A DNA stretch of 64,000 nt, from the NCBI RefSeq assembly GCF_025449215.1, contig NZ_CP104900.1, forward strand, positions 682,001 to 746,000, read 5' to 3'. The number at the start of each line of letters is the position of its first letter. Position 1 is the first letter of the stretch. The translations under genes and the position numbers were made by a program. A model generated the notes under the pieces. The model saw nothing but the letters and a program-made list of their open reading frames with translations, ran no database searches and was not told the origin of the DNA. Positions 1 to 62,171 of this stretch are shown piece by piece. Source of the DNA: Shewanella seohaensis (lineage in GTDB: Bacteria > Pseudomonadota > Gammaproteobacteria > Enterobacterales > Shewanellaceae).

Positions 1-352
1 CCGGCGGCGTGATGCCCATAAAAGACTGCGAATGCCAGACTATGCTCTGCTGATGCTCGGCATTCTCTGTGGTGGCAATGGCATAGAGGCCTGATTGAAT
101 GAGGTTAAAGCGGTTTTCGAGCACTAATTCGGGGATAAAAATCCGTTTGTTTTCAACCTCAGTCACCGCTAACACCGAATACACATAGGCACTTAGCTCG
201 TTTTTAGCGGCGCTTTTTACTTGCTCGGCAAAGGCGTCATTGAGGGCGACCCCAATCAGCGGCAGCAGCACCAAAATAAACAGCAGCGCACTGAGGACGA
301 GCCGAGTTTTGAGGGAGTTTAATAACTGCCAGGCAAGCGCACGCTTACTCAT
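1..352 (-). CDS. PhoQ-like sensor histidine kinase, N-terminal part (cut by window edge)
   Basis: The reading frame starts with ATG at 352 and stays open to base 1, so only about 117 N-terminal residues are present. It begins MSKRALAWQLL, followed by a hydrophobic membrane segment at about residues 17-35, and then the start of a periplasmic sensor region. The catalytic core lies outside the window. Its start overlaps the stop of the upstream response regulator by several bases, the usual arrangement of a co-translated two-component pair. The family (PhoQ/QseC-like kinase) is inferred mainly from this pairing and from the topology. The signal it senses cannot be read from this fragment. Confidence 0.75.
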   Translation of the reverse strand, partial: MSKRALAWQLLNSLKTRLVLSALLFILVLLPLIGVALNDAFAEQVKSAAKNELSAYVYSVLAVTEVENKRIFIPELVLENRFNLIQSGLYAIATTENAEHQQSIVWHSQSFMGITPP

Positions 353-1027
353 CTGGGGAGATGACTCTTAAACGATAGCCTTGGCCGCGCAGGGTTTCGA
401 TCAGATTATATTGGTTATCTGGGTCGAGTTTTTGCGTAAACGGCGGATAAAGACTTCGATAACGTTGGAGTCGAGGTCAAAATCCTGATCGTAGATATGT
501 TCGGTGAGCGCAGTTTTCGATTTCACTTCGCCCTGATGCAGCATAAAAATCTCAAATAGTTTGTATTCAGAGCCGCTTAGGGTGACGAGTTCATCCCCTT
601 TGCGCACTTCTAAGCTACTAGTATTTAAGCTAAAGGGGCCGTTAGTAATCACTGGGCTGGCTTTACCGGCCGAGCGGCGGATCAAGGCTTTGAGCCGAGC
701 CACTAATTCTTCGGGATGGAAGGGCTTAGTGAGATAGTCGTCGGCACCAGCATCGAGGCCCTCGACTTTATCCTGCCAGCTATCTCGCGCGGTTAAAATC
801 AGGATAGGGAACGCGCGCTCTTTTTGGCGCACGCGGCGAATAAGGCTTATGCCGTCGAGTTTAGGTAAACCGACATCGATAATCGCGGCATCATAATTAT
901 ATTCAATGGCTTGATACAGACCTTCTTCACCGTCGCTGGCGACATCTATGCTGTAGTGAGCATCGAGCAAGTGCTGTTTTAAGTTGGCTTGAAGCGCTAA
1001 ATCGTCTTCAACGAGTAAGAGTCGCAT
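345..1027 (-). CDS. OmpR/PhoP-family DNA-binding response regulator (frameshifted near its C terminus)
   Basis: This is a two-domain response regulator. The receiver domain (about residues 1-115) has the acidic pair EDD at 7-9, the phospho-acceptor Asp51 in AAIIDVGLP and the Lys in LTKPF. A winged-helix Trans_reg_C domain occupies about residues 125-225. The literal frame stops at 401 because one base is missing in the T5 run at 429-433. Adding one T gives the expected ending KKLDPDNQYNLIETLRGQGY and a 227-residue protein that ends at 345, overlapping the kinase start. The ATG at 1027 is chosen because it starts directly at the receiver domain. A longer upstream frame only runs antiparallel to nothing recognisable. 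The regulator is preceded by a PepSY gene one base away and is probably in its operon. The shift is most likely a sequencing error. Confidence 0.85.
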
Positions 1028-1028
1028 A

Positions 1029-1331
1029 TTAATTCCTCGAAACACGCCCAGTGGCGGCATCCACCGAAACAGAAAAAACTTGGCCATCGTTATTGAGGAT
1101 TTTGACTCTATAGCCCGAGCCACTCGACTGCACGCTGAGCACTTTTCCTCGATATTGACGTTGCGCCATCGCCACGGCCTGATCTGGACTGTTGACCACA
1201 AGGCGGCGCTGCTCATTCTTCACACCTTGGCCGCGCGATTGATTACGATCATCGTGTTTATCATTGCCCGCCATGCTGCCAAAGGAGGTGCATAAGCAAG
1301 CGACTAGGGTCAGTGTCAAACCAAGTTTCAT
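1029..1331 (-). CDS. Small secreted PepSY-domain protein
   Basis: This 100-residue protein starts with a clear signal peptide (MKLGLTLTLVACLCTSFGSMA, cleavage near residue 22). A charged Arg/Asn/Gln-rich linker follows, and then a PepSY domain from about residue 46 to the end. The domain contains the typical pattern A...A....G.V..V.....GYRVKI....G....V.VDA.TG. It ends one base before the response regulator start, so it is the first gene of a PepSY-regulator-kinase operon. PepSY domains inhibit peptidases or act as periplasmic sensors. Secreted PepSY proteins encoded next to two-component genes are common in Shewanella and may modulate the kinase, but that role is inference from the neighbourhood. 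Confidence 0.8.
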   Translation of the reverse strand: MKLGLTLTLVACLCTSFGSMAGNDKHDDRNQSRGQGVKNEQRRLVVNSPDQAVAMAQRQYRGKVLSVQSSGSGYRVKILNNDGQVFSVSVDAATGRVSRN

Positions 1332-1690
1332 ATCTGTTACCCGCGCATGTTCGGCGATCTTAAGTGAGTAGCTAGGTGGATAGCTTATCGAGTCGACTAA
1401 GAATACCTTATCACCATAACAAACACATAGAGATCAGCCAATTGGTAAACACAATTCCTTTAAAATTCACTGCGATTCGTGGGATTTTATCGAGTTAATC
1501 CCCATCGAACCTCTTTACAGAACAGGAGTCATATCCTGTGACATATTAGCAGTGTTAACCAAAACAGATGAATTGAGGCTGAACGGCTTTTTATCCCAAA
1601 AAATCACGGTTTTTAATGTTCAGCTTATGTTCACCTTGAGTGCCCTCTAATGTCACCAATTTGAACGGATTATCCAATGGGGTATTCAAG
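1332..1690. other. Intergenic region between divergent PepSY operon and anchor-H gene
   Basis: These 359 bases separate two divergent transcription units and must hold both promoters. I see no open reading frame of convincing quality and no RNA gene. Two structures stand out. A dyad at 1522-1539 has arms ACAGGA and TCCTGT around six bases. A wider 7-base inverted repeat has arms GCTGAAC at 1578-1584 and GTTCAGC at 1618-1624. Either could be a regulator site, perhaps for the two-component regulator encoded on the left, but no known consensus was matched. Confidence 0.5.
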
Positions 1691-3358: not shown

Positions 3359-3376
3359 TGCCTGATTAAAAAACAA

Positions 3377-3414: not shown

Positions 3415-5390
3415 TTAAGCCGCTCGGGCAGATACTGTGTTGGTGTCGGCTATGCCTAGGCTGGTCTCAATATCTTCCACGCTTTGCTGTACTTCTTGGG
3501 CAATCACTTCGCTCTGCTGCGAACTGGTTTGCGCTTGGTCTTTTAGGTTATCCATGCTGCGGACAAATTCATCGAGGTAATCGACCTGTTCCTTGGCGTT
3601 AAGCGAACCCTGCTTGGCGGTATTGGCCATTTCACTCGCTTGATTTTGTACGGTTTGCGCCACATGCCATAGGCTCTGTGCCCGCTGTTTTTGGCTATCG
3701 GTCGCTTGGGCAATGCCATCGACACTCTCGCCGAGTGCGAGGTTAGATTGGGTGAGTTGATGCAGGATCTTCACGATTTCATTTAACGACACCTGAGTGC
3801 GTTGACTCAGGCTTCGAACCTCATCGGCGACCACGGCAAAACCGCGACCTTGCTCGCCCGCTCGGGCGGCTTCGATGGCGGCATTAAGCGCCAACAGATT
3901 GGTTTGCTCGGCAATATTGCCAATTACATCAATGATTTTAGCGACATCTGCCACCGAGTTATTTAGGCTTTCGAGCGAGGCATGGCAAAGGCCAACCGCC
4001 GTCTGGGTTTGTTCTGTGGCACTCAGCACGGCTTCTGCCTCGGTTTGGCTCGACTGCATTTGGCGCATGGTTTCGGCCGCGCTTTGTTCAACAAGGGCCG
4101 AAGTGTGGCTGACCTCATTGGCGAGGCTGCGGATATGCTCGGTTTGCGACTGAGTGTCGGCAACTATGGTCTGAGTGTGTTCGGTGTGCTGCGACAGTTG
4201 AGTAATGCGCGCGACCAACTGACTCAAGGATTGAGAAACCTTAGTCATTTGTTGGCGCTGGAGTTCGTCTTCTTGCTCGAATCTGTGCAGTAATTGGTTG
4301 AAATGGCCTGCAATTTGGCCGGTTTCACAGCGGCGATTGATATCCAAGCGTTCACGACTGTTGGACTCGCTTAATTGCATAAAGGCTTGATTGAGGCGTT
4401 TAAGGGGCTTAACCACACGGTTCTGTTGCAGGATTAAGTAGCCGATAGCAAACAGCGCCATAATCGAAACCATCGCATAAAGAATGACTTGTAACTCATA
4501 TTTGAGCTGTTGGTTTTTGGCGGCCTGTGCCTCGCCGAGGGCGATGAGCTGCTGTTCAACTCTGCTAATGGCTTGAATTAACTGCTCTTGCATCTCCTGA
4601 TTGGCTTGCAGCAGTTGGTGGGTGTTGGCGACTTCTTTATTGTAGCGGTTGGCAAGGCTTAACAGCTCGCTGCGATCATTTTCGCCCACTTCAATTTGTT
4701 CTGGCTCACTCGCGCCTAGGGCAAATTCATCGGCTTCCTGCTGCTCGTACACGCCGATTAACGGCAGGGCGTTCAGTCGGTCACGCCACTGGTTCAGCTC
4801 CTTGCTGGTGCTGTCGAGAATATTTTTAAGTTGCTGATTTTTATCGATGAGATAGCCATCGGTAAGCTGCGATAATTGATAAACAATGCTGGGTAAGTCG
4901 CGACTTAATTGCAGATATTGTTCGGCCACAGTGGCATTAATCGCTAAACCTTTGTCAGCGTAACTGCCGAGTCTGCGGTTATAGTCGAGCATTTCAGATT
5001 CGGCGTGGGCCAGCAGTTGTCTTGGGTTGCCCGCGAGTTTGCCTGCGGCGCGGTATTTAGTGTCTAAGTCTTGAATGAATTGGCTAAGGCCAGTTTGTAA
5101 TTCCTCATCGGCACTGCCCGCTGCGGCGAGGTTGAGCTCGCTGAGCTTGGTTTTAATCTTGCTTAGTTTGGCTTTGGCTTCTTCGAGTTGGGTCGCGTTG
5201 CCACTGGCTAAATAGCCATCGAGATCGCGGCGCACCCCACGAGAAAATCCTGTTGTAGGCCTTGCAGCACTTGGGTTTGTTGCTCAATCTGTTGTCTTTG
5301 ATCACTGCTCCACAGCACCACGGCTGCTAATAGTCCAGCAAGCAATAACAACAGCGCCGAAGCTGAGAGTGACAGCGTTGAAATCTTCAT
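3415..5390 (-). CDS. Methyl-accepting chemotaxis protein (frameshifted)
   Basis: This is a membrane chemoreceptor of 658 residues after repair. The first membrane segment lies at about residues 7-27 ([18 protein letters not shown]). A helical periplasmic sensor of about 250 residues follows, then a second membrane segment ([19 protein letters not shown]), a HAMP region and the MCP signalling domain with the hairpin tip [22 protein letters not shown] and [11 protein letters not shown]. The literal sequence breaks after residue 51 because a C is missing in the C4 run at 5235-5238. Adding it joins LQQDFLVG to [13 protein letters not shown] in frame. The ligand cannot be predicted. A dyad (5460-5492) sits between this gene and envZ. 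The break is most likely a sequencing error. Confidence 0.9.
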
Positions 5391-7588: not shown

Positions 7589-7956
7589 GGGATGTCCTTA
7601 AATTGCTCGGATTATTGCTTTTATTCTTTATGCCGTCATACAACAAAGATTAACTGGCTGAAATTGAAAACGAATCTGCCAAGAATGTGCTTAATATAGC
7701 TGGATTCAATCTGAGCGACTAGCTCATGATGTGAGTCAATGTCGACCGAATACGGCTAATTGCCAACTCATGTTAATACTAAGCAAATGAAATTGCATGG
7801 GAATCGTCACATTTATCTAGTATGTAACTGAAATTGTAACTAAATTGGCATTAGCTACTTTTGATGCATTTGTTGAGTTAACTTATCAGCTTTATGGCAA
7901 AAGTATTTTGATTAGTCCAGAATCATAACTCTATGATTATCAATTATTAGGTGTAT
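7589..7956. other. Divergent intergenic region between ompR and the hybrid kinase gene
   Basis: These 368 AT-rich bases hold the promoters for ompR (leftward) and the hybrid kinase (rightward). I see no gene. A compact dyad at 7921-7938, with arms AATCATA and TATGATT around four bases, lies about 20 bases before the kinase start. It could act as an operator or as an mRNA hairpin near the ribosome binding site. No known regulator consensus was matched. Confidence 0.5.
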
Positions 7957-10900
7957 ATGACCCTGTCGATGAGTTACAAGCAAGCCTCCAAGTGGGGATT
8001 TTTCGTCTTGCTCGTGGGACTTTTTTTAGTGCCGTGCTCGCTTGGCAGGTGAGTCGTATCAATTCGCAAACCATTTCTTTGGCGCTCGAAGCGAGCGCGC
8101 AGCAGATCAGTGAGAATGTCACCAATAGGATTGCCCTCTACCAATATGGCTTGAGGGGCGCCCGAGGCATGATTCTCACGGCGGGTGAAGACCATATCAG
8201 CCGCCCCATATTTCAAAACTATAGTCTGACGCGGGATGTGGATGGGGAGTTTCCCGGCGCACGCGGATTTGGCTTTATTCGGCGGGTCTCCAAAGAAAAC
8301 GAAGCGCAGTTTTTAGCGCGGGTAAAGGCGGTCGATTGGCCTGACTACCATATTCGTCAGCTCAACCCCAACGAGGGGGAAAAGTATCTGATTGAATATA
8401 TTGAACCGCTCGAGCGCAATAAGGCGGCGGTTGGTTTAGATATCGCCTCTGAGACCCACAGAAAAGAAGCTGCCGATCGCGCCATGCTGTCGGGAGAAGT
8501 GCAAATTTCCGCGCCGATTACCTTAGTGCAGGCCACGGGTAAGCCGCTGCAATCCTTCTTAATTCTGTTACCCGTTTACCGTACCAATGTGGTTCCCGCG
8601 ACGCCAGAAGAACGACTGGCTCAAGGGTTTGGTTGGAGTTATGCGCCGCTGGTGACGACCGAGATTTTAACGGGATTATCGCTGAATCAGAAAATGACCA
8701 AGCTGATGTTAAGCGACGTGACGGACGATAAGCAGCCGATCAATTTCTTCGAAACCCACGCCAATGATTTAAGCCCGCTATCGGATTACAGCTACAAGTT
8801 AAATAAGACGATTTTTGGTAGGCATTGGCAGTTTGAGGTAATGGCCTATCCAGGTTTTATCAAGTCATTACATCTCAATAAGCCCAGCTTAGTGTTGCTC
8901 AGTGGCAGTTTGTTTAGTGTGTTGCTGGCGGCGTTGATCGCTATGTGGTCCTTAACCTTGCAACGTAAACAGCAAGTGTTAGCCGAGCAAGCGCGCCGCG
9001 CTAGCATGTTGGAGCATTCCCTCGACGGCATTATCAGTTATGACCTCGCTGGCAATATAACCAGTTGGAACCAAGGTGCTGAGCGACTCTTTGGTTACAC
9101 TGAGCAGCAGGCGCTGGGCTTACCCAGTAGCGAATTGATTATTCCGCCCAGCATAGTGCTGGAAGAACAGGCTCTCATGGCCGATGTGTTGACCGGCAAG
9201 ACGGTACTCAATCGAGTATCGCGCCATCAACGTGCCGATGGTAGTAACCTGTCGACCTCGACCACTGCCTTGCCGATTTACGACGAGCATGGCGACATAG
9301 TGGGTTTGAGTCAAACCATTCGGGATATCACGGCCCAGCAGGATGCCGAGCGACATATTCTCAACCTCAACGCTAGCCTCGAACGACAGGTAACCAAACG
9401 TACCCATGCTTTGCAGCAGGCCTTACTCGAGAATCAGGCACTACTCGATACCATCAACCAGCAGCTACATTATTCGGTCACCGATTTAGATGGGGTGATT
9501 TTAGAGGTGAATGAGCACCTCTGTTTGATCAGTGGCTACGCGCGGGAGGAGTTAATAGGTCAAACCCACTCAGTGCTGAAATCTGGCGAGCACGATGCCG
9601 CATTTTGGCAGCGGATGTGGGAGCAGATTAAGGCTGGTAAATCATGGCATGGGGAAATCTGTAATCAAGGGAAAGATCAGCAGCTGAAATGGTTCGATAC
9701 TGTGATTGGTCCGGTCTTCGATGAGCATGGCAAAGTGGAGCGTTTTGTCGCGCTGCAAACCGATATTACCGAACGTAAATTAGCCCAGCTCGAAAAAATC
9801 GGATTGCGACTCTGCTGACCAATGTGCTGGATGCGGCCTCCGAAATGACCATCATTGCCACCGATCCACAGGGCATTATCACTATCTTCAACCGCGGTGC
9901 CGAGCGCATGTTGGGATATTCCGCCGAGGATATGGTTGGCAAAACCACCCCTGCACCTTTGCATCTTGCCGAGGAAGTCGCCGCCCGTGCCGCTGAGCTA
10001 TCTACGGGGTACGGTGAAAAAATTCAAGGTTTTGAGACGTTTGTCCACAAGGCGCGGGAAGAGGGCTCCGAGACTCGCACTTGGACCTATGTGCGTAAGG
10101 ATGGCAGTCAATTTCAAGTCTCGCTCTCGGTGACAGCATTGCGTGGTAATGATGGTGAAGTTTTGGGTTACCTTGGGATTGGCGTGGATATTTCGCAAAT
10201 TGTCGCCCAGCAAGAGGCCTTACTCACGGCGAGTAATCACCTCAGTAAGGCGGCGGAAGTGGCTAAGCTGGGGATTTGGACCTGGAATCTGCTCGATAAC
10301 TCGTTGCAGTGGAACGACCGCATGTTTGCCATGTATGACCAGCCAGAAAGCCTTAAACAGCAAGGTCTTAGCTATGAGCATTGGCGGATGCGTGTCCATC
10401 CCGATGATGTAGAAGAGGCCGAAGAAAAGCTTAACCGTGCGGTTGAGTATGATGAACCCTATGATCCAATTTTCCGCGTGTTAACCACCGATGGTGCGGT
10501 GCGCTATGTGCAGGCGGGTGCACAAGTAGAGCGCGACCGTCAAGGGAATGTGATCCGATTGATTGGGATCAACATCGATATTACCGCCCAGCGGCAGATT
10601 GAGGCGACTTTAAGGAGTGCTAAGCTGGAGGCGGATAACGCCAATGCCGCTAAGTCGGCGTTCCTTGCCAATATGAGCCACGAAATCCGTACCCCCATGA
10701 ATGCGGTGTTGGGGATGTTGCAGTTGATGCAATATACCTCGCTCTCGGTGCAGCAGCAGGGCTATGTGAACAAGGCGCAAACGGCGGCTAAGTCATTGTT
10801 AGGACTGCTTAACGATATTTTAGACTTCTCAAAAATCGATGCCGGCAAATTAAAACTCGATCCACACCCTTGCTCGATTGAGTTATTGATGCGGGATCTG

Positions 10901-12837
10901 GCTGTGGTGTTATCGGCGAGCCACAGCAATACCGATGTGGAAGTGATGTTCGATCTCGACTCGGCGCTGCCTCCTTGGCTGCTGGCCGATCAATTAAGGC
11001 TGCAGCAAATTCTGATCAACCTCGCGGGCAACGCACTCAAGTTTACCCCCACGGGCAAGTGATTGTCGGCCTAGAATGTATTCGCCATGAGGCCGATACC
11101 GTCACTGTGCAGTTTTCGATTGTCGATAGTGGTATCGGCATCAGCGAAGAGCAAATTGAGCGGATTTTCACTGGGTTTGAGCAGGCCGAATCGTCAACCT
11201 CCCGCCGTTTTGGGGGCACGGGACTTGGACTGGCTATCAGTAAACGTCTCGTTGAGTTAATGGGCGGACAACTGCAAGTCACCAGTAAAGTCGGGGTTGG
11301 CAGTCGCTTCTGGTTCGATTTGACCTTCCAAGTGATGGAGGTCGAAGCCCGCGCCCGCGCCGATTTGAGCCAATATCGCATTCTGGTGGTCGACGATAAT
11401 CAAATCACGACCGAGATCTTATCGAAAATCCTCAGCGACTACGGCTGTCTGGTTGAAACCGCTTCTGGCGGTTATCAGGCCATTGAAAAGGTAAAACAGG
11501 CCAATGCAGCCGGACAGCAGTTTGATGTGGTGCTAATGGATTGGCGTATGCCGGATATCGACGGTCTACAAACCGCGGAAATGTTGAAAAATGCCGGAAC
11601 CGGCAGTTATACCCCGCTGGTGGTGATGTTGACGGCCTACGGCCATGAAGTGATTGCCGAGAGTCAGCACATTAATAACGTTCCCTTCGTCAACTTCTTA
11701 ACTAAGCCTGTCACCTCGCAAGTGTTGGTTGAAGCCGTGCTCAATGCTATCGAAGGCAAGACCATGGACGCGAATCCTAAGCCGCGCTCACAGCGTCTGT
11801 TAGCGGGGCTGACTCTGTTAGTGGTTGAAGACAATCAATTAAACCGTGAGGTGATTGAGGAGCTGCTGAGTTATGAAGGCGCCACCGTTGTGCTCGCAGG
11901 TGGCGGTGTGGAAGGGGTGGCACAGGTACTCGAAAGCGGTGATTTATACGATGCCGTGATTATGGATGTGCAAATGCCCGACATCGATGGGTTAGAGGCG
12001 ACGCGGCGGATCCGTGCCGATGGTCGATTCGCCCAGTTGCCAATCCTTGCGATGACGGCCAATGCCTCGCAAACCGATAAGCAAGAATGCCTCGAGGCGG
12101 GGATGAATGCCCACGTCGGTAAGCCTATCGATATGCAGCTGCTGTTACCGAATATTCTGCGTCTAGTGGGGCGTGATGTGACATCCCTCGAGCAGCATGA
12201 GTCTGCGCATCTCGACTCACAACACAATCTCGAGGGCGAAACCCTGCTCGACGATATTCGTTTGATTTTGCGTCGTTTTGGCGGCAACCAAGTGTTTTTC
12301 GAAAAAATGGCGAGCAGTTTTGCCCCCGAAATGACCAAGCAGCTAAGCTTGTTCAAGCAATCGACCAAAACCTTTGATTACGCCACTACAGCTGCGATCA
12401 GCCATGCGATTAAAGGCATTGCCAGCAACTTTGGCGCGCGGCGTTTAGCCGTTCATGCGGCGTTTTTAGAAAAACAATTTAAACAAGAAGGCCTCGAGCT
12501 GCTGGAAATAAAACGCTGGACGGATACACTGGAGTCCTTAATACACCAAAGTATTGAACAGCTTGCAGGCTTTTTACCTAAGGGGCAGCTCAAACAGCCT
12601 CAATCGATTGAGCCTGTAAACGGTACCGCCGTGGATATGCAGAGTATGCGCCCCGAGCTGGATACCTTGGCTGCTCTCTTACAGGAAAATAATTTAGAAG
12701 CCGTGAATTTAGTCGACAAACTCGCAAAACCGCTATCACAGCACCCGCAATGGGCTGAACTCAATGGACTGGTTCAATCACTCGCATTTACACAGGCTTT
12801 GGAGACTTTGCGGGCGATGATGTTGGAGGATGCGTAG
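7957..12837 (+). CDS. CHASE/multi-PAS hybrid sensor histidine kinase with two receivers and Hpt (three frameshifts)
   Basis: After repair this is one membrane kinase of 1627 residues. In order it has: a membrane segment (about 14-35), a periplasmic CHASE-type domain (about 45-280), a second membrane segment (about 310-335), four PAS domains (about 350-880), HisKA with NMSHEIRTPMNA (acceptor His near 908), a HATPase (about 1000-1125), receiver 1 (VLMDWRMPDIDGL), receiver 2 (VIMDVQMPDIDGL) and an Hpt domain with AISHAIKGIASNF. Single bases are missing in T7 at 8021-8027, A6 at 9793-9798 and C5 at 11046-11050. Each repair restores conserved sequence across the break, for example ALKFTPHGQV in the ATPase. 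The ATG at 7957 supplies the first membrane segment. Its stop overlaps the GTG start of a diguanylate cyclase, its probable phosphorelay target. Confidence 0.9.
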
Positions 12838-13780
12838 TGTATATAAGTGAACTCATGGCGACCCAGCAGGCCGCAAAGGGCAAGATTTTGATCGTGGATG
12901 ATCAGCCTTTGAATATCAAAATCTTGCACCAACTCTTCCATGAAGAATATGAAATGTTCATGGCGACGAGCGGTGAGCAGGCTCTGCAGGTATGCCAAAA
13001 GATGCAGCCCGATCTGGTGTTGTTAGACATCGAAATGCCCGGAATGTCGGGTTACGAGGTTTGCCAACAACTGAAGGCCGAACCCACCACCGCTAATATC
13101 GGGGTGATCTTTATTACCGCCCATTTTGATGAGATGGAAGAGGTGAAGGGTTTCCAACTCGGCGCGGTGGATTTTATTCACAAACCGATTAACCCCATCA
13201 TCACCAGCGCGCGGGTCAAGAACCAATATCAGCTGAAGCGCCAATCCGATGTATTGCACTCCATCGCCTTACTCGACAGTTTGACTGGGGTCGCTAACCG
13301 CCGTCAGTTTGAGCAGCGCTTACCCGAAATCTGGCGCTTTTGCTGTCGGAATCAAGCCTACTTATCCGTTATCATGCTGGATGTGGACTTTTTAAGCGTT
13401 ATAACGACCGCTATGGTCATCAAGAAGGTGACCAATGTTTACGACTGGTTGCCGATGCCGCTAAGGGCATGTTAAAACGCCCCAACGATCTTATCGCGCG
13501 CTATGGTGGCGAGGAGTTTATCTGTATCCTGCCTGAGGCCAAGTTGTCTGGGGCCATGCGCCTCGCGCAGGCGATGGTGGATGCGGTGCAGGCCTTACAC
13601 ATAGAGAACTTGGGGTCAGATTTTGGCGAAGTCACTGTGAGTGCTGGTATTGCGACGATTCAACCCTTAGCCGATTTAAGTTGGGAGTCGCTCGTCGAAG
13701 TAGCGGATCAACAACTCTATCTGGCGAAGCATCATGGCCGTAATCAAGTGGTTGGTGTCGATATCGAACCGGCGCAATAG
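12837..13780 (+). CDS. Response-regulator diguanylate cyclase, REC-GGDEF (frameshifted)
   Basis: This is a PleD/WspR-like enzyme of 314 residues after repair. It would make cyclic di-GMP from GTP when phosphorylated. The receiver domain (about 17-135) has VDDQ, LVLLDIEMPGMSGYE with the acceptor Asp, and the Lys in FIHKPINP. The GGDEF domain (about 150-310) has SLTGVANRR, the substrate region DVDFFKRYNDRYGHQEGD and the catalytic loop RYGGEEF. One T is missing in the T5 run at 13389-13393; adding it joins LDVDFF to KRYNDRYGH. The GTG start at 12837 overlaps the kinase stop (TAGTG) and has GGAGG seven bases upstream, which indicates translational coupling. No product-inhibition RxxD site was seen directly before GGEEF. 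Confidence 0.9.
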
Positions 13781-14342: not shown

Positions 14343-14471
14343 CCTTTAGTAGATCAAACTCTCGTCGATTTTCATGCTGAAATCGAGAGCATCATATGAA
14401 ATAACGACTGCGCCTGTGGTATCTTGGGCGCAATTAGGATCAATCAAACCGTTAGGCACGATACTTTATTT

Positions 14472-16810
14472 ATGCAGACTATTGCCCAAATTATTGCTCA
14501 GGAACTGAATGTTCAGGAGCATCAAGTCACTGCCACCATAGATTTGCTCGACAATGGTGCTACCGTTCCCTTCGTTGCCCGTTACCGTAAAGAAGCGACT
14601 GGGGGCTTAGATGACACCCAGTTACGTACGCTGCACACTCGTTTAGGTTATTTGCGCGAGCTGAATGACAGACGTCAGGTCATTTTATCCAGCATTCAAA
14701 CACAAGGTAAGTTAACACCTGAATTGCAACGGGAAATTGAAGGCGCGGACAGCAAGACCCGTCTCGAAGATCTGTACCTTCCCTTCAAGCCTAAGCGCCG
14801 TACTAAGGGCCAAATTGCGATTGAAGCGGGATTAGAGCCGCTTGTTGAAGCTTTACTGGCGGACCGTAATGCCGATATCGAGGCATTAGCTGCGGGTTAT
14901 CTGAATCTCGAAGTGGGCTTTGCCGATACCAAAGCCGTACTGGAAGGCGCCCGTTATATTCTGATGGAACGTTACGCCGAAGATGCGGAATTACTGCGTA
15001 AAGTTCGTGAACACCTGAGCCAAAACAGTGTGTTAGAGAGCCGCGTTATCGCTGGCAAAGAGAAGGAAGGCGCTAAGTTCCGCGACTATTTTGAGCACAG
15101 CGAGCCTCTGGCGAAAGTGCCGTCACACCGCGCCTTGGCGATGTTGCGTGGCCGCAATGAGGGCTTCTTATCTCTATCCATGAATGCCGATCCTGCTGCC
15201 GAAGCGGGTCAGGGCAGTTACTGTGAAGTGATCATTAGCGAGCACTTAGGGCTAAAACTCGGCGAGAGCAGTGTCGATCAATGGCTTAAGACCGTTGTGA
15301 CCGCCACATGGCGGATTAAAATTGCCCTGCAGATGGAAACCGAGTTTATCTCGCAAATGCGTGAGCGCGCCGAAGCAGAAGCCATTAAAGTGTTTGCCCG
15401 CAACTTAGGCGACTTACTTATGGCCGCACCAGCGGGCGCTAAGGCGACTATGGGTCTAGACCCGGGACTACGCACGGGCGTTAAAGTGGCCGTGGTAGAT
15501 AACACGGGTAAGCTGGTCGCACACACAACTATCTTCCCCCATGCGCCACAGAATTTGTGGGATAAGTCGATTCGTACCTTAGCCAACTTAGCGCAAATGC
15601 ATAAGGTGGAATTAATCGCGATTGGTAACGGCACTGCATCACGCGAAACTGACAAGTTAGCGGGTGAGTTGATTGCCAGCCTTAAGGATAGCCAACCGCA
15701 ACTGACCAAGGTGATGGTGAGTGAAGCGGGTGCTTCCGTGTATTCCGCCTCAGAACTCGCCGCGCTGGAGTTCCCAGAGCTGGACGTGTCTATTCGTGGC
15801 GCCGTTTCGATTGCTCGCCGTCTACAGGATCCCTTAGCGGAACTGGTGAAGATTGAGCCTAAATCCATCGGTGTGGGTCAATACCAGCACGATGTAAGCC
15901 AAAGCCAGCTGTCTAGCTCGCTCGAAGCCGTGGTCGAAGACTGCGTAAACGGTGTGGGCGTGGATTTAAACATGGCGTCAGTGCCTTTGCTGTCGCAGGT
16001 GGCGGGGTTAAACAAAACCTTAGCGAAAAACCTGGTCGACTACCGCGATGCCAATGGCGCCTTCAAAAACCGTAAAGAACTGTTGAAAGTGCCACGCTTA
16101 GGCCCTAAAGCCTTTGAACAAGCCGCGGGTTTTTGCGGATCCGTGATGGCGACAATCCATTGGATATGTCGGCGGTTCACCCCGAAGCCTATGCGCTGGT
16201 CGAAACCATTGCTAAGACTAAGCAAGTAGAGTTGGCGAGCCTTATCGGTAATTCTGAGCTGCTACGCAATATCAAGCCGCAGGAGTTTACGACCCCTGAG
16301 TTTGGTTTACCGACAGTCACCGACATCCTCAGCGAGCTGGATAAACCGGGTCGTGACCCCCGTGGTGAGTTTAAAACCGCCAAGTTTAAGGATGGGGTTG
16401 AGGAGCTTAAGGATCTGAAACCTGAGATGATCCTCGAGGGCGTTGTCACCAACGTAACTAACTTTGGCGCCTTTGTGGATATCGGTGTGCATCAAGATGG
16501 TTTAGTGCATATCTCGTCATTAACCGACAAATTTATTACCGATCCCCATACAGTAGTGAAAGCGGGTGATGTAGTGAAAGTGAAGGTGATGGAGGTCGAT
16601 GTCGAGCGTCGTCGTATCGGTTTGAGTATGCGTCTGGATGAGGTTATCGATCAGAGCAAGGCTCAAACACGCGGCCCATCTCAAGGTAAGCCACAGGCTC
16701 ATAAGGGCAATGCCCAGCATAAGTCTTCGCGCCCTGCGCCAAAAGCGGCACCTGTCAACGCGGCCATGGGCAATGCCTTTGCCGACGCCTTCGCAAAGCT
16801 GAAAAAGTAA
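14472..16810 (+). CDS. tex: Tex family S1 RNA-binding transcription accessory protein (frameshifted)
   Basis: This is a 779-residue protein after repair. Tex proteins bind nucleic acids and contribute to transcription of some genes and to stress tolerance. In order it has: the Tex N-terminal helical region (1-190), an RNase H/YqgF-like domain (about 325-455, [17 protein letters not shown]), helix-hairpin-helix repeats ([13 protein letters not shown] and [21 protein letters not shown]) and a C-terminal S1 domain ([26 protein letters not shown]) followed by a basic tail. One T is missing in T5 at 16130-16134; adding it gives [15 protein letters not shown]. The ATG at 14472 is chosen over a longer upstream frame because it begins the conserved N terminus. 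The repaired length is normal for Tex. Confidence 0.93.
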
Positions 16811-22100: not shown

Positions 22101-24037
22101 CTATAGCTGGGTTTTCAGATTGTCGGCTAAAAACTTATCGAGCGCCTTAAAGGTGGTTAGCCTATGGTCATTGTTACTTAAATAATGGTCACCATTTTCG
22201 AGCTCAATATATTCGACGTTTTTCTTACGTGATTTCAGTTCGTCGAACATTTCGCGACTATGTTGCACCTTAACCACTCGATCCTTATCGCCATGCAGTA
22301 GTAATACCGGGATAGTGATCTTATCGGCTTTACTAACGGGTGAGCGTTCATAGAGGGCGCTAAAATCATCACCAATTTGTTCTTTAACAACTTCATAATT
22401 GGTGAAACGGCGACTGGATTTTACTAGGTAAGCCACATCTGTTACACCAGCCACACTGACCGCGCAGCGGTACAGATCAGGTGTCATCGCCGCGCCCATT
22501 AAGGCGGCATAACCACCATAACTCGCGCCGACGATACAGATACGCTGTGGATCGCTAATCCCTTGATTGATTAAGTAACGTGTACCATCTTCCACATCGT
22601 TTTGCATTTCGAGTCCCCAGCTTTTGAGGCCGGCCTTCATAAACTCATAGCCGTAGCCCGCCGAGCCCCTAAAGTTCATTCGAAATACCGCGTAACCACG
22701 GTTGGCGAAAAACTGCGACCAATAATCGAAGTCGTTACTGTCGTAACTAATCGGCCCGCCGTGGGGAAGATAATGGTGGGGAGTTGCTTGGCTTCGAGGC
22801 CCTTTGGCACTGTCAGGTAAGCATCGATTTTAAGTTTATCCCGCGCTTCGTAGCTCAGATATTGAGTGTCGGCGAGTTGCTCGCTGCTTAGCTGGCTATA
22901 TCTATCGGCAATCGGAAACAGTGCCTTTTCATCCCTATCGCCGAAGTAATAGGTGCCAGGTTGAGTCGAACTGGTGGAGTAGACGATATAGCGGCGTTCA
23001 TCCGCGCTAAATTGGGTGATGTAGTTATGGGCATTGGGCAATACTGCTTTCAACCCATTTTGCAGACCCGCATACTCAGGATCCCAGAAGGTATATTCTT
23101 CGCCGTCGCCCTCACTGATCCCAATGACTTTTTTCTTGAGTTCTGAATAGATGAGATTGCCTTCAACATCGGTATCTTCGTTGGCGTACACCAGCTCCTT
23201 GGTGAGCTTAGGATCGGTTAAATTCACCTTGAAGATAGCTTCAAAGCCTTGGTGGTAGGCGCGTACGAATAAGATGTTGGGGTCGGCATCGAAGCCCAGT
23301 GGCCAGACGCTCTCGTCGGAGAAGGCTTTAAAGGTCCAGAGTAAGCGTGGCTCTGCCTTTTGTTCTGGTTGCTCGTAGATCCTATATTCAGTGTCATCGT
23401 TATAGATGGAGATACGGACCTTATGTTGCCTGTCGGTAATCCAGCCGATGATTTTACGTTTAGAGTTTTGAATAAATGCGGATTTTCCCTGCGAGAGATT
23501 GACTCTCAGCACGCTGTCTTCGCCCACTTCTTCGCCCATACCATCGAGGGAGAGCAAGATATTATCGGGGTCATCCGGCATCATATCGATAATCTGTCCC
23601 TGATGTTGGGGGATCCAACTGAGTCGGTCGATGACGCTACGGGCGAGTACGCTCGTGGTTTTTCGCGTAGTTAAATCGTACTTCACCAAGCGAGTTTCGG
23701 TGGTCGGTGTACCGTAGCGGTTTGCCGGAAACTTAGCGCTGATCAGCAAGGTGGTGTCATTTGCCCACTGTAATGACAGCAGGACAAACTTCTGGTTATC
23801 GGTGTGAATCGCGTAGTCTTTGTTGCCCGTTTCTAAATCGAGAATACTGACCACAGTGCCCTTAAGTTTGGGCTGATCGACTCGAACGATAGAGGCAATT
23901 TTTTTGCCATCGGGCGACAGTTGGACTGAGCTGACATCGGGAATACTGGCAAAGGCCTCGACCGGAAGCTGTGGTACCGTTTGGGCAAGCAGTGGCAGAC
24001 TTAGCCACAGAAGTAACAAAGGTAAAATCCTTTTCAT
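22101..24037 (-). CDS. S9 family prolyl oligopeptidase-like peptidase (frameshifted)
   Basis: This is a 645-residue secreted serine peptidase after repair. It has a signal peptide (MKRILPLLLLWLSLPLLAQ) and a beta-propeller region (about 30-390) starting with SIPDVSSVQLSPDGKKIASI. The alpha/beta hydrolase domain has nucleophile GASYGGYAAL (Ser), acid in HGDKDRVVKV (Asp) and base in ENGDHYLS (His). The literal frame breaks before the catalytic domain because one G is missing in the G4 run at 22763-22766. Adding it restores IIFPHGGPISYDSNDFDYW, the conserved oxyanion region HGGP. The propeller may limit substrates to short peptides. The gene is convergent with nfuA and probably transcribed alone. 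Confidence 0.9.
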
Positions 24038-27206: not shown

Positions 27207-27248
27207 ATTTTGTCCTTTGACCATGCTCGCCCTATTGCTCGTTGCACA

Positions 27249-40955: not shown

Positions 40956-41044
40956 TTTATATTCATCTTTTTATCGCCAAAACTGGACAGTTGCACAAAC
41001 TCCAGCTTAACTCGAACACATTATCTGTTTGATTGGAGTCTGCA

Positions 41045-41820
41045 ATGAGGATTACTCAGTATGCACAGGGACAGGCCTGTTGGGTCGAACTGGCGAGCCA
41101 TGACTGGCAGGGCGCACAGGCGTTTTACCATGCACTGTTTGGTTGGAATGCGGTGGAAATGGCGATTCCTAATGGTCATTTCTCGCTGTTCAATCTGGAG
41201 GGAGACGATTTAGGGGCCATGTATCAAATCCCTGAGTCGGAACCACAGATCCCTAGCCATTGGCGGATCTATTTTGCGGTTAAGGATATCGAAGCAACGG
41301 TTGCCGCCATCCTAGCTGCGGGTGGGCAATTACACATGGGACCGCACGTGGTGGGGGATGCGGGCGTGATGGCGCAGGTGAGCGACCCCGAAGGCGCACG
41401 TTTTGCCCTGTGGCAAGCGAAAAATCACTCTGGCTCGCGTCGCCAAGGTGAAGAAAATACTCTATGTTGGGTGGAGCTGGCCTGCCGCGAACCTAGCGCC
41501 GAAGCCAGTTTTTACACTCAAGTGTATCCTTGGACCGCACTTCCTAGCCATGTGCCCGGCATCGATTACACCGAGTGGCAAATCGACGGTCAGTCTATGG
41601 GGGCATGATGAAAATGATGCCAGAATGGGGCGAGATCCCCGCCCATTGGATGCCTTATTTTGTGGTGGCGGATTGTGATGCTTTTGCCGCTAAGGCGCAG
41701 GGGCTGGGCGCACAGCTATGCGTGCCGCCAAGCGATATCCCCGATGTGGGACGTTTTGCGGTGATTGCCGACGCGCAAGGGGCAACTTTTGCGGTCATCA
41801 AGTTAAATGCGCTATCTTAA
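41045..41820 (+). CDS. Two-domain VOC (glyoxalase/bleomycin-resistance fold) protein (frameshifted)
   Basis: This is a 258-residue protein after repair, made of two tandem VOC domains (about 8-125 and 138-257). Each begins with a similar pattern: CWVELASHDWQGAQAFYHALFGW and CWVELACREPSAEASFYTQVY. Each ends with SDPEGARFALWQ or ADAQGATFAVIK. VOC proteins use a metal to act on small molecules; the substrate is unknown. One G is missing in the G5 run at 41599-41603, and adding it gives QSMGGMMKMMPEWGEIPAHW. The ATG at 41045 is chosen over the one at 41033 because the domain begins shortly after it. The gene stands alone between terminators. Confidence 0.87.
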
Positions 41821-44120: not shown

Positions 44121-45276
44121 TTAGTTTGGATTGTCGATAAACAGTGTGGCCGGGCAATTGGTTTTTTCGCCTTCGGCGCCTTAGCGAGCAGACTCGGCAA
44201 AGAGTCGGAGTTGTTGATGACTTGAGGCAGGTTAATGCGAATTTCACTCAAGAGTCCTTTGGCGCAGTCTAGGGTGACTTTAGTGTGCGCACCTTGGCCA
44301 AAGCTGGCATCAAAGCTCTGATTTAGCTCCTGTTGAGTCACTTTTTTACCGATTCTTTCATGGATAAATTGTTGTACCCATGCAGAGGCATTCACTTCCT
44401 GTGTCAGCTGAGTCGCCAGTAAGAAGTAGTCATTAGGGTCTTGGTTGCGACAGGTGCCATGTTTCCACCATTCATGACGCTCTAAACAGCTGCCGTAGCG
44501 GGCGCTTGGCATCACTTCCTCGAGATTTTTTGGACGGAGGCATTGAGCGTCACCTCGGGATAATCACAAAAATCACTCGGTTGTTGTTTCACGCTGCTGC
44601 AAAAGCCGTAACGGGTGCCACATTGCTGGCGATTCGGCCAGAGGCCATGCAGGCTAAAGTGTTGCCACTGAGGCGCATCACTGTTCTGGCTTAAGGCGCG
44701 GCACTCAGGTTTACGGCTGCCATAGAGTTCGCAAAAGGTGCTCTGCCAACTCAGGGCGAGCACATTGGAGTCGTAGTTATCTTCGATTTGACACACATTG
44801 CCTTGGCGCTTCTCTGGCGTGCCACGTTCTTGCGGGTTTTCACTCTTAACCGCCATGCTCTCGCTAGTGAGGTTTGTTTGCGCGGGCTCGACATTAGCGG
44901 CTGGTTGAGCGGTCGCTATGGATTCGGCGGGCGCTGTAGCTGCGGCATTGTATTGTCCGCAATCACCTTTTATCCAACGCAGTGGCGAGCTGTTGGCATT
45001 AGTTCGCACCCTAAGCCAATCGGGATTACTGCTATTGCCTAAAATTTCGGCAACGGGATAACGCTCGCCAATATTGCTCTGCCAATCATCGGGATTGGTT
45101 TGTTTATTTTTAGACTGAAACAGTTCACAGCGCTTGTTGGCGACAAACTCTCCCGAGGCAGGGGCCGCCTGAAGTGCGATGGGCGTAAAACCTATCAACA
45201 ACAGCCCCAGCAAGCCAAAGCTATGGCGATAAATACCTGCGCGGTTGTGGATGGGAAGAGAAAATAAAGCTGTCAT
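44121..45276 (-). CDS. Periplasmic ribonuclease T2 family protein with N-terminal extension (two frameshifts)
   Basis: This is a 385-residue secreted RNase after repair. It has a signal peptide (about 1-38), an SH3-like N-terminal region (about 45-105) with DWLRVRTNANSSPLRWIKGDCG, a linker, and the RNase T2 domain. Both catalytic motifs are present: CAS I HFSLHGLWPN and CAS II RHEWWKHGTC. One base is missing in T6 at 44526-44531, restoring VQKNLEEVMPSARYG. A second probable loss at CC 44179-44180 restores the ending KTNCPATLFIDNPN with a stop at 44121; as written, the frame ends at 44072 with an unrelated tail. It cleaves RNA non-specifically, probably for nutrient recovery. Confidence 0.87.
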
Positions 45277-45453: not shown

Positions 45454-48400
45454 TTATTCTGCTTTATTGATTTGGCGAGCGTAGATCAACAGATACAGTG
45501 CAGGCAGAACAAACAGCGACAATATCGGTGCCGTGACCATACCGCCGACCATAGGAGCGGCGATTTTTTGCATCACATCGTTACCCGAACCTGCGCCCCA
45601 CATGATGGGCAAGAGGCCGAAGAAGATGGTTGCTACCGTCATTGCTTTAGGTCGAATACGCATGACCGCACCTTCAATCAAGGCTTCTTTTAAGTCCTCG
45701 ACGGTGTGGTAGGTGTTTTTCTCCTGCCGATGTTTAATGGCGTTATTGAGGTACACCAACATCACCACCCCGAATTCGGCGGCGACCCCGCAAGGGCGAT
45801 CATCCCCACGGCGACGGCGACCGAGATGTTGTAGTCGAGCAGATACAACAACCAAGTGCTACCCACGAGGGCGAAGGGAAGGCTGAGCATAATAATGCTG
45901 GCCTGCATGGTCGAGCCAAAGGTCATCATCAGTAGGATAAAGATTACCCCGAGTGCCATAGGGATCACTTGCTTGAGTTTAGCGTCGACCCGCTGCATGT
46001 ACTCGTACTGACCCGCAAAGCTGTAGCTGTAACGAGCTGGGACCACGAGTTCCTCATCCAAGGCTGTTTTGGCGGCCGCGATATATTCACCAATCGAAGT
46101 GCCTTCGATATCGATAAACACCCACGAAATTAACCGGCCGTTTTCACTCTTAAGCATAGGCGCGCCATCGGTAATTTCGATATCGGCCAAATTACGCAGT
46201 GGCAAATAATGACCCGATTTAGTGATCACCGGCAGTTCGCGCAGTTTCTCGATATTGTCACGCAGTTCGCGTGGGTAACGCAGGTTGATGGGGTAGCGCT
46301 CTGAGCCCTGCACCGACTCACCAATATCCATACCGCCAATCGCGTAACGTACTACATCTTGGATATCCTGTAGTGTCATGCCATAGCGGGCGGCTACATC
46401 GAGTTTGGGGCTGATATCAATATAGCGACCGCCACCACTGCGTTCGGCGTAGGCCGATTTGGTGTGCGGCACTTTACTTAAGATAGCCTCAATCTTAGCG
46501 CCTAGGGTTTGTAGCTCATTGACATCGGCGCCAGTGATCTTAATCCCCACGGGGGTTTTAATCCCCGTCGACAGCATATCGATACGGGTTTTAATTGGTT
46601 GCACCCAAGCGTTGGTTAGCCCGGGCACTTTCACCGTTTGCTGCAACTGATTAATGATGCCGTCTAAGGTCATGCCCTCACGCCATTCATCATGGGGGTT
46701 GAGCATAATCGTGGTTTCGAGCATGGTCAGCGGCGCGGGATCGGTTGCAGTTTCGGCGCGGCCGACTTTACCGAATACGCGGGCCACTTCAGGGACGGTT
46801 TTAATCAAACGGTCGGTCTGTTGCAGCACTTCGGCGGCTTTACTGGCGCTGATCCCTGGTAGTGCCGTTGGCATATAGAGTAAATCCCCTCTTCGAGGGC
46901 GGGCATAAATTCACTGCCCATACGCGTCATAGGATACCAAGCGCTCGCCAATGCCACTAAGGCAAGCACTATGGTGATTTTAGGGAACTTAAGCACCAGT
47001 TTTAATGCCGGTTGATACAGGGCAATCAGCACGCGACTGATGGGGTTACTGCGCTCGCTTGGGATTTTCCCACGGATAAAGTAACCCATGAGAATCGGCA
47101 CTAAGGTAATAGATAAAAATGCGGCCGCGGCCATAGCAAAGGTTTTGGTGTAGGCGAGCGGTGCGAATAAGCGTCCTTCCTGCGCCTCTAGCGCGAAGAC
47201 GGGCACAAAGCTTAAGGTGATGATAATCAGCGAGAAAAATAGCGCTGGGCCGACTTCAATCGAAGCCTCGGTCACAATGCGCCAGTGCTCTTTTACCGAA
47301 GGTTCACGGTCGTGCTCGGCTTTAAAATGCTCCAAATGTTTGTGCAGGTTTTCGATCATAACGATGGCACCGTCAACGACCGCACCGATAGCAATAGCGA
47401 TACCGCCAAGACTCATGATGTTGGCATTCACGCCCATTTTGTTCATCACGATAAAGGCGATGAGAATCGACAGCGGCAAGGTGATCACAGCCACTAAGGT
47501 TGAGCGCGCATGCAGCAAAAACAGCAGACACACTAAGCCTACGACCAGCATTTCTTCGACTACTTTGCTGAACAGGTTGTCGACGGACTTTTGGATCAGT
47601 TGCGAACGGTCATAGGTTGGAATGATTTCCACGCCGTCAGGCAGACCGGTTTTTAACTCTTCAAGTTTAGCTTTGACCGCATCGATAGTTGCGAGGGCGT
47701 TTTCACCGTAACGCATGACCACAATGCCGCCTACGACTTCGCCTTCACCATCTAGCTCGGCAATACCACGGCGAGAAGCAGGGCCTTTACGGACGGTCGC
47801 AACATCCTTAAGCAACAAGCCTGTGCCGGATGGGCTAGTGATCCCTAAAGGAATTTCACGGAAATCCTCTAAGGTTTGGCGATAACCCTTAGCGCGCACC
47901 ATGTATTCGGCTTCGGCCATTTCGACCACAGAACCACCTGCCTCGCTGTTGGCTTTATCGATCGCTTGCTTAACGGCGGCGATATCGAGCTTGTAAATCG
48001 CCATTTTGTCCGGCTCAAGCACTATCTGATAGGTTTGTTCCATGCCGCCGACGGTCGCAACTTCGGAGACGCCGGCAACACTTTGTAGCTCGAGTTTGAG
48101 ATACCAATCTTGCAAGCTCTTGAGCTGAGACAGGTCTAAGTTGCCGGAGCGATCGACCAGTGCGTACTCAAATACCCAACCCACGCCTGAGGCATCGGGG
48201 CCGAGTGAGGGTTGTACCCCTTGAGGTAAGCGACTGCTGATCTGGCTTAAATACTCCAACACCCGCGAGCGCGCCCAATAGATGTCAGTGCCATCTTCGA
48301 AGATCACATACACATAAGAGTCACCAAACATCGAAAAACCCCGCACGGTTTTTGCACCGGGCACGGCTAACATGGCGGTTGAGAGAGGGTAAGTTACTTG

Positions 48401-48589
48401 TTCTTCAACCAATTTTGGCGCTTGGCCCGGATAAGGAGTCTTAATAATCACCTGCACATCGGATAAGTCCGGCAGGGCATCGAGCGGCGTTTTACGCAGC
48501 TCCTGTATCCCCCAGACAGTGATCATCATGGCGATAATCAACACCATGAGCCTTTGTCTGATCGAGGACTCGATAATATATTTCAACAT
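45454..48589 (-). CDS. cusA: CusA-type heavy-metal efflux RND transporter (two frameshifts)
   Basis: This is a 1045-residue inner-membrane RND pump after repair, the size of E. coli CusA. The beginning [18 protein letters not shown] and the loop [21 protein letters not shown] identify the HME (heavy-metal efflux) branch. Methionine-rich steps fit Cu(I)/Ag(I), but the metal is inferred. Conserved charged residues of the proton path are in [14 protein letters not shown] and [14 protein letters not shown]. Missing bases lie in C4 at 46886-46889 and C4 at 45786-45789. The gene follows cusB by nine bases. No outer-membrane CusC gene is present beside it, so the channel must be encoded elsewhere. 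Confidence 0.93.
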
Positions 48590-60290: not shown

Positions 60291-60296
60291 TGGCGA

Positions 60297-61346
60297 TTAA
60301 TCCTGCTGCGTACTGGCGACAAGTTTAAGTTGATGAAGCTTCAAGCATTGAGACTTGCCGCTTGGCGCGATTAAGTCTTGGCTAAAGGCGGCTAACGTAT
60401 CGAGCCCTGGGATTTCATCGGGCGTCAGTATGGCGGCTAAATGGGCCAAGTCATTGATACCTAAGCTGGCCTCAAGGCTTGAGCTTAAGATACAGCGCAC
60501 GCCATGGCTGTGGGCCTCGTCGATAAGGCGCTGAAGTTTTTCAATACTGCCAAGTAGCATGGGTTTGATGATGAGTGCCGTGAGTCCCTCGTGCATCACA
60601 AATTGATAATCCGGGTCATTGAGGGATTCATCTAAGGCGTAGGGCAGAGGAATAGCGCGATACAGGGTTTGATTATCCTGCGGATGTTGGCAAGGCTCCT
60701 CAATATATTCAATGCTCTCTAGCGGTAAACAGGCGGCAAAATCGAGGGCCTGTTCTAAGCTAAAGCCACGGTTGGCATCTAAGCGCAGCTTTAGAGCAGG
60801 TCTCTGGCCTAAGATGCCATAAACCAAGCTCAATTCATCTTCCATTGAGGTTTGCGCAACCTTCACTTTGAGTGAGTGCACCCCGCTATCAAGACTCGCA
60901 ATGTTAGCGAACAATTCGGTTTTGGGCGCATCCACCGGCTGATAAATCAACGGCACAGTGGCGGTAACTGGGCGCAGCGTATTGAGTTTTCCGCTGAGTT
61001 TGGCATGCAATAGACTCAAGCCAAAGGCAATGGACGGATAAGAGCTCGCTTCGGCCTGCTCGAGCAAGTAATCGATAGGCTGATTTTGTAGCTCGGGCAA
61101 TAGCGCCACTAAGGCCTGTTGTACTTCGTCTAGGCTCTCGCGGCTAAAACCGGACAATGGCTGCTGCTCGATATCAAACCCTGAGAGTGGCGCGATTTCA
61201 ACCAGTTGCTCACTTTCTTCGCCCTCAGTTTGTGCCTTTGCCTGCAACACTAAGCCGGTTCTGTGGTCGATGCGTTGTTTCCCCACGGGTAAAAAGCGGT
61301 CTAAGGGCAGGCGATATAAGTACAAGCTGAGCGAAGTTAAGATCAT
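60297..61346 (-). CDS. menC: o-Succinylbenzoate synthase MenC
   Basis: This 349-residue enolase-superfamily enzyme dehydrates SHCHC to o-succinylbenzoate. The active-site Lys is in LKVKVAQ, metal ligands are in RLDANRG (Asp), IEYIEEPC (Glu) and ALDESL (Asp), and the second Lys is in LIIKPMLLG. It follows menH closely. The frame is intact. Confidence 0.94.
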   Translation of the reverse strand: MILTSLSLYLYRLPLDRFLPVGKQRIDHRTGLVLQAKAQTEGEESEQLVEIAPLSGFDIEQQPLSGFSRESLDEVQQALVALLPELQNQPIDYLLEQAEASSYPSIAFGLSLLHAKLSGKLNTLRPVTATVPLIYQPVDAPKTELFANIASLDSGVHSLKVKVAQTSMEDELSLVYGILGQRPALKLRLDANRGFSLEQALDFAACLPLESIEYIEEPCQHPQDNQTLYRAIPLPYALDESLNDPDYQFVMHEGLTALIIKPMLLGSIEKLQRLIDEAHSHGVRCILSSSLEASLGINDLAHLAAILTPDEIPGLDTLAAFSQDLIAPSGKSQCLKLHQLKLVASTQQD

Positions 61347-61368
61347 ATTTTCCCTAAATTTATCTGTA

Positions 61369-62171
61369 TCAAGTCATCGATTTTTTAAGCTTTAGTGCGC
61401 TTAAGCGGGCGATTAATGCCGCGGGATTGGCCTGATGTATGTTATGCCCAGCCTGTTCAATCTGATGCAAGATGATGGGCTGTTGTGCTTGCCAAGCTTT
61501 TGCTATTGCGGTGAATTTCGCATCTTGGCTGCCCGCAAAAAAATGGCATTCACAGCCAAGGCTTTCAGGTACATCCCAGAGAGAGGCTTGGCGAGCCAAC
61601 GATGTGGCCAAAAAGATCTGTTTTAGTGTCTGCTTGGGATGTTGGTCGAGCAGCGCCGCGCGCTTGGCAATCAAGGCATACCGCGCTTTATCCGACATAT
61701 CGGCAAATACTGCCTGTTGATACCAAAGCTGTAAAAATCCCGACTGCTTAAGCTGAGTAAGCGTTTGGCCCACAGGTTGTCGTTTTTACTGCGTGCGGCT
61801 TGCTCTGCGGTATCGGTTAGCCCGGGATGACAGGACTCTAGCCATAAGCTCAAAACGCGCTGCGGATACGCCTTGGCAAGATGCAGGGCGATGCGGCCGC
61901 CGAGGGAATAACCGTAGAGATAAAAGGATTCAATATCAAGGCGATCGAGGCGGCTGATAATGTCTTGAACACAATGCTCGAAACCATTGGCGAGCGTCGA
62001 TGGCCGCTCGTTCTGATTATCGCCGTGTCCGGGTAAATCGAGGCAGATACAATGAAAATGCTGGCTCAGTTCGGGGATAAGCGGCAGCCAATCGGCCTTA
62101 GTCCCTAAAAAGCCGTGAAGCAGGACTAAGTTTGGCTGCGAGACTTCCCCGTAACGGGCCACGGTTGGCAT
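61369..62171 (-). CDS. menH: SHCHC synthase MenH (frameshifted)
   Basis: This is a 267-residue alpha/beta hydrolase after repair. MenH removes pyruvate from SEPHCHC in menaquinone synthesis. The oxyanion region is LLHGFLGTKADW, the nucleophile elbow is GYSLGGRIAL (Ser), the acid is in the region FFAGSQDAKF, and the base is His in IEQAGHNIHQ. One base is missing in the CCC run at 61769-61771. Adding it gives KNDNLWGQTLTQLKQSGFL and joins the two halves. The exact repair position is less certain here because the run is short. The ATG at 62171 overlaps the menD stop (TAATG), which indicates translational coupling. Confidence 0.9.

What the first reader, a model, noticed from the sequence alone, without database searches (positions are those of the whole stretch)
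345..62171. About 18 single-base losses break 13 conserved genes, all correctable by +1 at short homopolymers
Breaks occur at 429-433, 5235-5238, 8021-8027, 9793-9798, 11046-11050, 13389-13393, 16130-16134, 22763-22766, 26910-26915, 34638-34641, 36679-36680, 36914-36919, 41599-41603, 44179-44180, 44526-44531, 45786-45789, 46886-46889 and 61769-61771. Every one needs one added base, none needs a removed base, and after repair all gene lengths are exact multiples of three with family-normal sizes. Both strands and all functional classes are hit, while no substitution-type stop codons appear. That is the signature of homopolymer-deletion sequencing error, not pseudogene decay. Any automatic annotation of this sequence would report false pseudogenes and false short proteins.
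Basis: partly seen in the sequence, partly recalled or inferred. Interest (0 to 1): 0.7.

Follow-up and report, generated by a model that had tools for sequence, protein, structure and literature searches.

The report
Homopolymer sequencing errors, not pseudogenes
Eighteen apparent gene breaks in this stretch of a Shewanella genome are single bases lost, nearly always from runs of one letter, during sequencing or assembly, so the genes are very probably intact in the living bacterium.

Summary
Confirmed, and an artefact. The window lies in a one-contig, 4.75 Mb Shewanella-group genome. The losses hit 13 genes, each one open frame in sister G024; a 14th, SulA-like, was missed. The window and six further 20-kb stretches give 52 one-base losses against 8 gains in 150 kb of coding alignment to G039, against 8:3, 10:6 and 4:4 between sisters. 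Loss climbs with run length: G/C runs 1% at 4, 18% at 5, 3 of 4 at 6; A/T runs 8% at 6, 31% at 7. Outside the window the single-copy essential gene dnaE is split by the same kind of loss, and rpoB and rpoC are split too, but each by a one-base gain away from any run; ileS is intact. No cell could live with those breaks, so the assembly holds consensus errors. A long-read, probably Nanopore-only, assembly fits best. Biologically ordinary; a data-quality warning.

The parts
345..1216 (-). response regulator gene with Trans_reg_C domain, frame broken near 429
   Evidence: sister copy
3415..5390 (-). methyl-accepting chemotaxis protein gene, frame broken near 5235
7951..12837 (+). CHASE/PAS hybrid histidine kinase gene (1628 aa in G024), broken near 8021, 9793 and 11047
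12837..13780 (+). response regulator with GGDEF domain, broken near 13389
14424..16810 (+). Tex-family gene, broken near 16130
22101..24037 (-). S9 prolyl oligopeptidase-family gene, broken near 22763
26566..27224 (-). SCO1/SenC-family gene, broken near 26910
34000..35603 (-). cytochrome c oxidase subunit II gene, broken near 34638
35945..36462 (-).
36453..37071 (-). LexA gene, broken near 36680 and 36919
41033..41820 (+). glyoxalase-domain gene, broken near 41599
44121..45276 (-). ribonuclease T2-family gene, broken near 44163 (reader gave 44179) and 44526
45454..48589 (-). RND (ACR_tran) family transporter gene beside a CusB-like adaptor (below that model's cut-off), broken near 45786 and 46886
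61369..62189 (-). alpha/beta hydrolase gene close to menE (MenH-like by position, inferred), broken near 61733 (reader gave 61769)

Best explanation
The breaks are consensus errors of the assembly: single bases dropped, nearly always from homopolymer runs, when base-calling and polishing underestimated run length. Shown: the losses in the window are private to this genome, far outnumber gains in coding sequence, grow more likely with run length, and occur in several separate parts of the chromosome, including single-copy dnaE. Inferred: the platform was a long-read one, most likely Oxford Nanopore without short-read polishing (one 4.75 Mb contig plus this error spectrum). At the sampled excess (52 minus 8 in 150 kb of coding alignment) the whole genome would carry roughly 1,200 false frameshifts. 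A minority of the errors are one-base gains, such as those that split rpoB and rpoC.
For: 18 of 18 sites against sisters. Losses to gains in coding alignment to G039: 52 to 8 over 150,067 bases from the window and six further 20-kb stretches; the window with its two neighbours gives 28:6 against G024 and 27:5 against G015 (p). Sister controls 8:3, 10:6 and 4:4. Losses backed by each of two or more covering sisters: 40, gains by the same rule: 3. Run length, G039 runs read in this genome: G/C length 4, 4 of 409 shortened; 5, 13 of 74; 6, 3 of 4; A/T 5, 2 of 345; 6, 7 of 84; 7, 8 of 26; 8, 1 of 1; 9, 0 of 1. Runs of G/C 5+ or A/T 6+ shortened: 32 of 190 here, 4 of 164 in G024, 3 of 145 in G015. 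dnaE is split here by a one-base loss at a run of 5 and is one open frame in 3 of 3 sisters, with no second copy. rpoC and rpoB are also split and open in 3 of 3 sisters. Broken genes are about as constrained as the rest: nonsynonymous to synonymous codon differences 322:1428 in genes with frame-changing indels and 517:2541 in all, against G024; 62:432 and 227:1393 against G039.
Against: No reads were available, so no site is proved directly. rpoB and rpoC are each split by a one-base gain at a run of at most 2, not by a homopolymer loss, so only dnaE is an essential gene broken in the window's own manner. The same 10-kb stretch also holds a window-genome gain at a run of 9 outside rpoB and rpoC. 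ileS is intact, which is expected at about 0.3 losses per kb. Of 40 well-supported losses 5 are not at a remaining run of 4 or more: two lie at runs of 3, one (L110) sits beside a gain and may be a true difference, and two (window 36680, L113 11758) are not explained by run length. Some single losses among the 52 will be true evolution, as the sister controls show. Against G024 one G/C run of 4 and one A/T run each of 4 and 5 are longer here.
Confidence: 0.97

Rival explanations
1. Real pseudogenes: the strain is losing genes by frameshift mutation in homopolymer runs (for example a mismatch-repair mutator).
For: Homopolymer indels are typical of a mismatch-repair mutator (recalled). The window's losses are private to this genome.
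Against: Single-copy dnaE is hit in the same way, and rpoB and rpoC are broken too although their substitutions are nearly all synonymous; a cell would not survive this. Broken genes show no relaxed selection and no nonsense codons. Against G039 no G/C run of 3+ and no A/T run of 6+ is longer here; a mutator would be expected to give both directions (recalled).
Confidence: 0.015
2. Programmed frameshifting or transcriptional slippage restores the proteins from truly shortened runs.
For: Some sites are runs of six or seven A or T.
Against: Sisters carry the unshifted frames. Many sites are four or five C or G, and genes of many classes are hit. The contexts listed show no common signal by eye.
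Confidence: 0.003
3. Part of the errors come from base-calling trouble at modified bases rather than from homopolymer length.
For: Two of 40 well-supported losses lie at no run. CTCG or CGAG lies near 7 of 22 losses in the window and 9 of 40 in all.
Against: The same words lie near 124 of 861 comparable runs; 9 of 40 is not significant (p = 0.17), and the word was chosen after looking at the window's sites.
Confidence: 0.1

Closest known systems
Systematic indel errors in Nanopore-only bacterial assemblies (Homopolish, PMC8011154; passages seen)
   Same: Indels within homopolymers and false pseudogenes; the passages report 151-5298 pseudogenes in R9.4 genomes after Racon-Medaka.
   Different: Platform and pipeline of the present genome are unknown; here coding errors are mostly losses, while that paper's tables list insertions and deletions in proportions that depend on the polisher.
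Gene-fragmenting errors in long-read assemblies (Kastor, PMC12007338; passages seen)
   Same: Deletions after runs of one nucleotide; 1234 PGAP pseudogenes (23.3% of genes) in one draft long-read Pseudomonas assembly, of the order of the roughly 1,200 breaks estimated here. The passages also describe insertions not tied to runs.

Membership tests
Long-read homopolymer-deletion consensus error | Loss is private to this assembly; relatives carry the full frame | tested here: met
   18 of 18 sites in G024 and G015, 14 of 14 covered in G039, 12 of 13 covered in G042
Long-read homopolymer-deletion consensus error | Probability of loss rises with run length | tested here: met
   two reference sisters; at G/C 5+ or A/T 6+ controls 4 of 164 and 3 of 145 against 32 of 190
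Long-read homopolymer-deletion consensus error | Spread over the genome, hitting essential genes by the same kind of loss | tested here: met
   (six further stretches). Of 4 essential genes, dnaE is broken by a loss at a run; rpoB and rpoC are broken by one-base gains, which is an error of another kind; ileS is intact
Long-read homopolymer-deletion consensus error | Accurate reads disagree with the consensus | not testable with these tools
   No reads held
Nanopore platform in particular | Assembly record names Nanopore-only sequencing | not testable with these tools
   G000 is unnamed; only the one-contig state and the error spectrum speak for it
True pseudogenes | Relaxed selection, nonsense codons, sparing of essential genes | tested here: not met

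The most novel reading that the evidence does not exclude
A small part of the errors (those at no run) marks modified bases that disturb base-calling, so a collection of such errors from the whole genome could reveal a DNA-modification motif of the strain.
Probability: 0.05. Interest if true: 0.25.

Novelty: not a real feature. Interest (0 to 1): 0.1.

Why it matters
It matters for data quality. By the tool's description this genome stands for its species in the searched collection, and it rates 99.83% complete, yet about one false frameshift falls in every 3 to 4 kb of coding sequence. A pseudogene count, gene-loss claim or protein set taken from it is unreliable. One trap is in the window itself: lexA and the SulA-like gene beside it both look broken, which could be read as an SOS-regulation mutant (lexA sulA double mutants are a known viable combination, recalled), but the likely cause is the same error.

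Tried and rejected
Strict matching of positions across sisters gave only 15 shared rows, three of them not one-base events, because a substitution beside a run shifts the alignment gap; a tolerance of 8 bases was used instead. Real pseudogene decay was rejected. Programmed frameshifting was rejected because sisters keep the frame. A motif seen by eye (CTCG or CGAG) was tested and is not significant. Two paper searches (listings and starts of abstracts) and passages of two papers show the error type well described; whether this assembly is discussed in print was not established. The ARAGORN and Rfam scans of the window returned nothing.

Full report
What the window is. The window is bases 682001-746000 of a single contig of 4,751,888 bases. 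A search with its plsB gene in 60 genomes of the genus (this one included, drawn from a larger group) matched all 60; the nearest three others are at 97-98% identity. The best named relatives by PlsB protein are Shewanella, up to 95% identical, so the genus is inferred to be Shewanella. Three close sisters (G039, G024, G015) and one distant (G042) were fetched over the same stretch. Their main aligned blocks are at 96-97%, 91-96%, 91-96% and 74-85% identity.

The observation. All 18 sites hold a one-base loss in the window against each close sister that covers them: 18 of 18 for G024, 18 of 18 for G015, 14 of 14 covered for G039; the distant G042 shows it at 12 of 13 covered sites. The losses lie in 13 genes that are single open frames in G024. 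Pfam scans of sisters' open copies name them: response regulator, chemotaxis receptor, CHASE/PAS hybrid kinase (three breaks), GGDEF response regulator, Tex, S9 peptidase, SCO1/SenC, cytochrome oxidase subunit II, LexA (two), glyoxalase-domain protein, ribonuclease T2 (two), RND transporter (two) and an alpha/beta hydrolase. A 14th gene, SulA-like, is one base short near 35960. With a tolerance of 8 bases the window has 22 losses and 1 gain that every covering sister supports.

Bias and controls. In the window, alignment to G039 gives 19 one-base losses and 2 gains. Six further 20-kb stretches give 5:3, 6:5, 13:6, 12:1, 8:2 and 5:4, so in some stretches the raw bias is weak; intergenic and divergent sequence adds indels in both directions. 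Restricted to sister ORFs of 90 aa or more, the totals are 52 losses and 8 gains in 150,067 bases: 23:4 in the window with its two neighbours, then 9:1, 9:1, 8:1 and 3:1 (sums mine). The same count between sisters gives 8:3 (G039/G024), 10:6 (G039/G015) and 4:4 (G024/G015). The binomial p is 5e-9 for this genome and 0.23 and 0.45 for the first two controls.

Dependence on run length. Taking runs in G039 with matching flanks, the share shortened by one in this genome is, for G/C: length 3, 5 of 2080; 4, 4 of 409; 5, 13 of 74; 6, 3 of 4. For A/T: length 5, 2 of 345; 6, 7 of 84; 7, 8 of 26; 8, 1 of 1; 9, 0 of 1. Single bases are missing 14 times in 76,323, a rate like that of the sister controls (8 of 63,352 and 18 of 60,961). 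At G/C 5+ or A/T 6+ the count is 32 of 190 here against 4 of 164 in G024 and 3 of 145 in G015 (Fisher p about 4e-6 for each). Of 40 losses backed by each of two or more covering sisters, 35 lie at a remaining run of 4 or more, while 13% of window positions lie within 3 bases of such a run. Five do not: two are at runs of 3, one sits beside a gain, and two (window 36680, L113 11758) stay unexplained. CTCG or CGAG near the sites is not enriched (9 of 40 against 124 of 861 comparable runs, p = 0.17).

Essential genes. Four single-copy essential genes were searched in this genome and three sisters. rpoC, rpoB and dnaE are each split into two pieces in different frames here, with no second copy, and are one open frame in 3 of 3 sisters. 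ileS is intact in all four. A closer look shows that dnaE is split by a one-base loss at a run of 5, against 3 of 3 sisters, as in the window. rpoB and rpoC are each split by a one-base gain at a run of at most 2, against 3 of 3 sisters. The stretch with rpoB and rpoC is also unusually far from the sisters (805-811 mismatches in 10 kb). The differences are nearly all synonymous (rpoB 14 nonsynonymous to 310 synonymous codons, rpoC 29 to 317), so the genes are functional and the two gains are errors too, of another kind. That these genes are essential is established knowledge. The breaks cannot be real in a living cell; for the homopolymer losses in particular, dnaE is the direct case.

Selection. 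Codon differences in genes with frame-changing indels are about as constrained as in all aligned genes: 322 nonsynonymous to 1428 synonymous against 517 to 2541 for G024, and 62 to 432 against 227 to 1393 for G039. These sets include four (G024) and one (G039) genes whose length differences look natural. No nonsense codon lies in a broken gene. The one seen against all three close sisters is at codon 15 of 231, directly before a start codon of the window's own ORF at 21388, so likely in a start extension.

Scale and cause. The excess, 44 in 150 kb of coding alignment, extrapolates to roughly 1,200 false frameshifts in the genome (inference, assuming about 90% coding). [quoted passage not shown] Kastor passages report 1234 pseudogenes in one draft long-read assembly and deletions after runs of one nucleotide (PMC12007338, passages). 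One contig and an excess of losses at runs make a Nanopore-type consensus the likeliest source (about 0.8, inference); the record itself was not seen.

Verdict. It is a technical artefact of a known kind and of low biological interest.

Noticed in passing
36453-37071 and 35945-36462: lexA and an adjacent SulA-like gene both look broken, which could be misread as a loss of SOS regulation.
   Followed up: yes
L134 (G000:C1:300001-310000), outside the window: The rpoB-rpoC stretch differs from the close sisters by about 8%, nearly all at synonymous places, while other sampled stretches differ by about 3-7% and the sisters differ by about 2% from each other there; the nearest of 59 other genomes is at 92%. 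It may be a tract taken over from another Shewanella lineage.
   Followed up: partly
7951-13780: The large CHASE/PAS hybrid kinase and its GGDEF response regulator are missing from the matching place in G039 but lie within blocks that align in G024 and G015.
   Followed up: no
L113 11758 and window 36680: Two well-supported one-base losses that lie at no homopolymer run; cause unknown.
   Followed up: partly
54264-55988: ftsY differs from G024 by a net three-base length change, and the long-block alignment to G039 breaks off over about 54474-54963 inside it; perhaps a variable region of FtsY.
   Followed up: no
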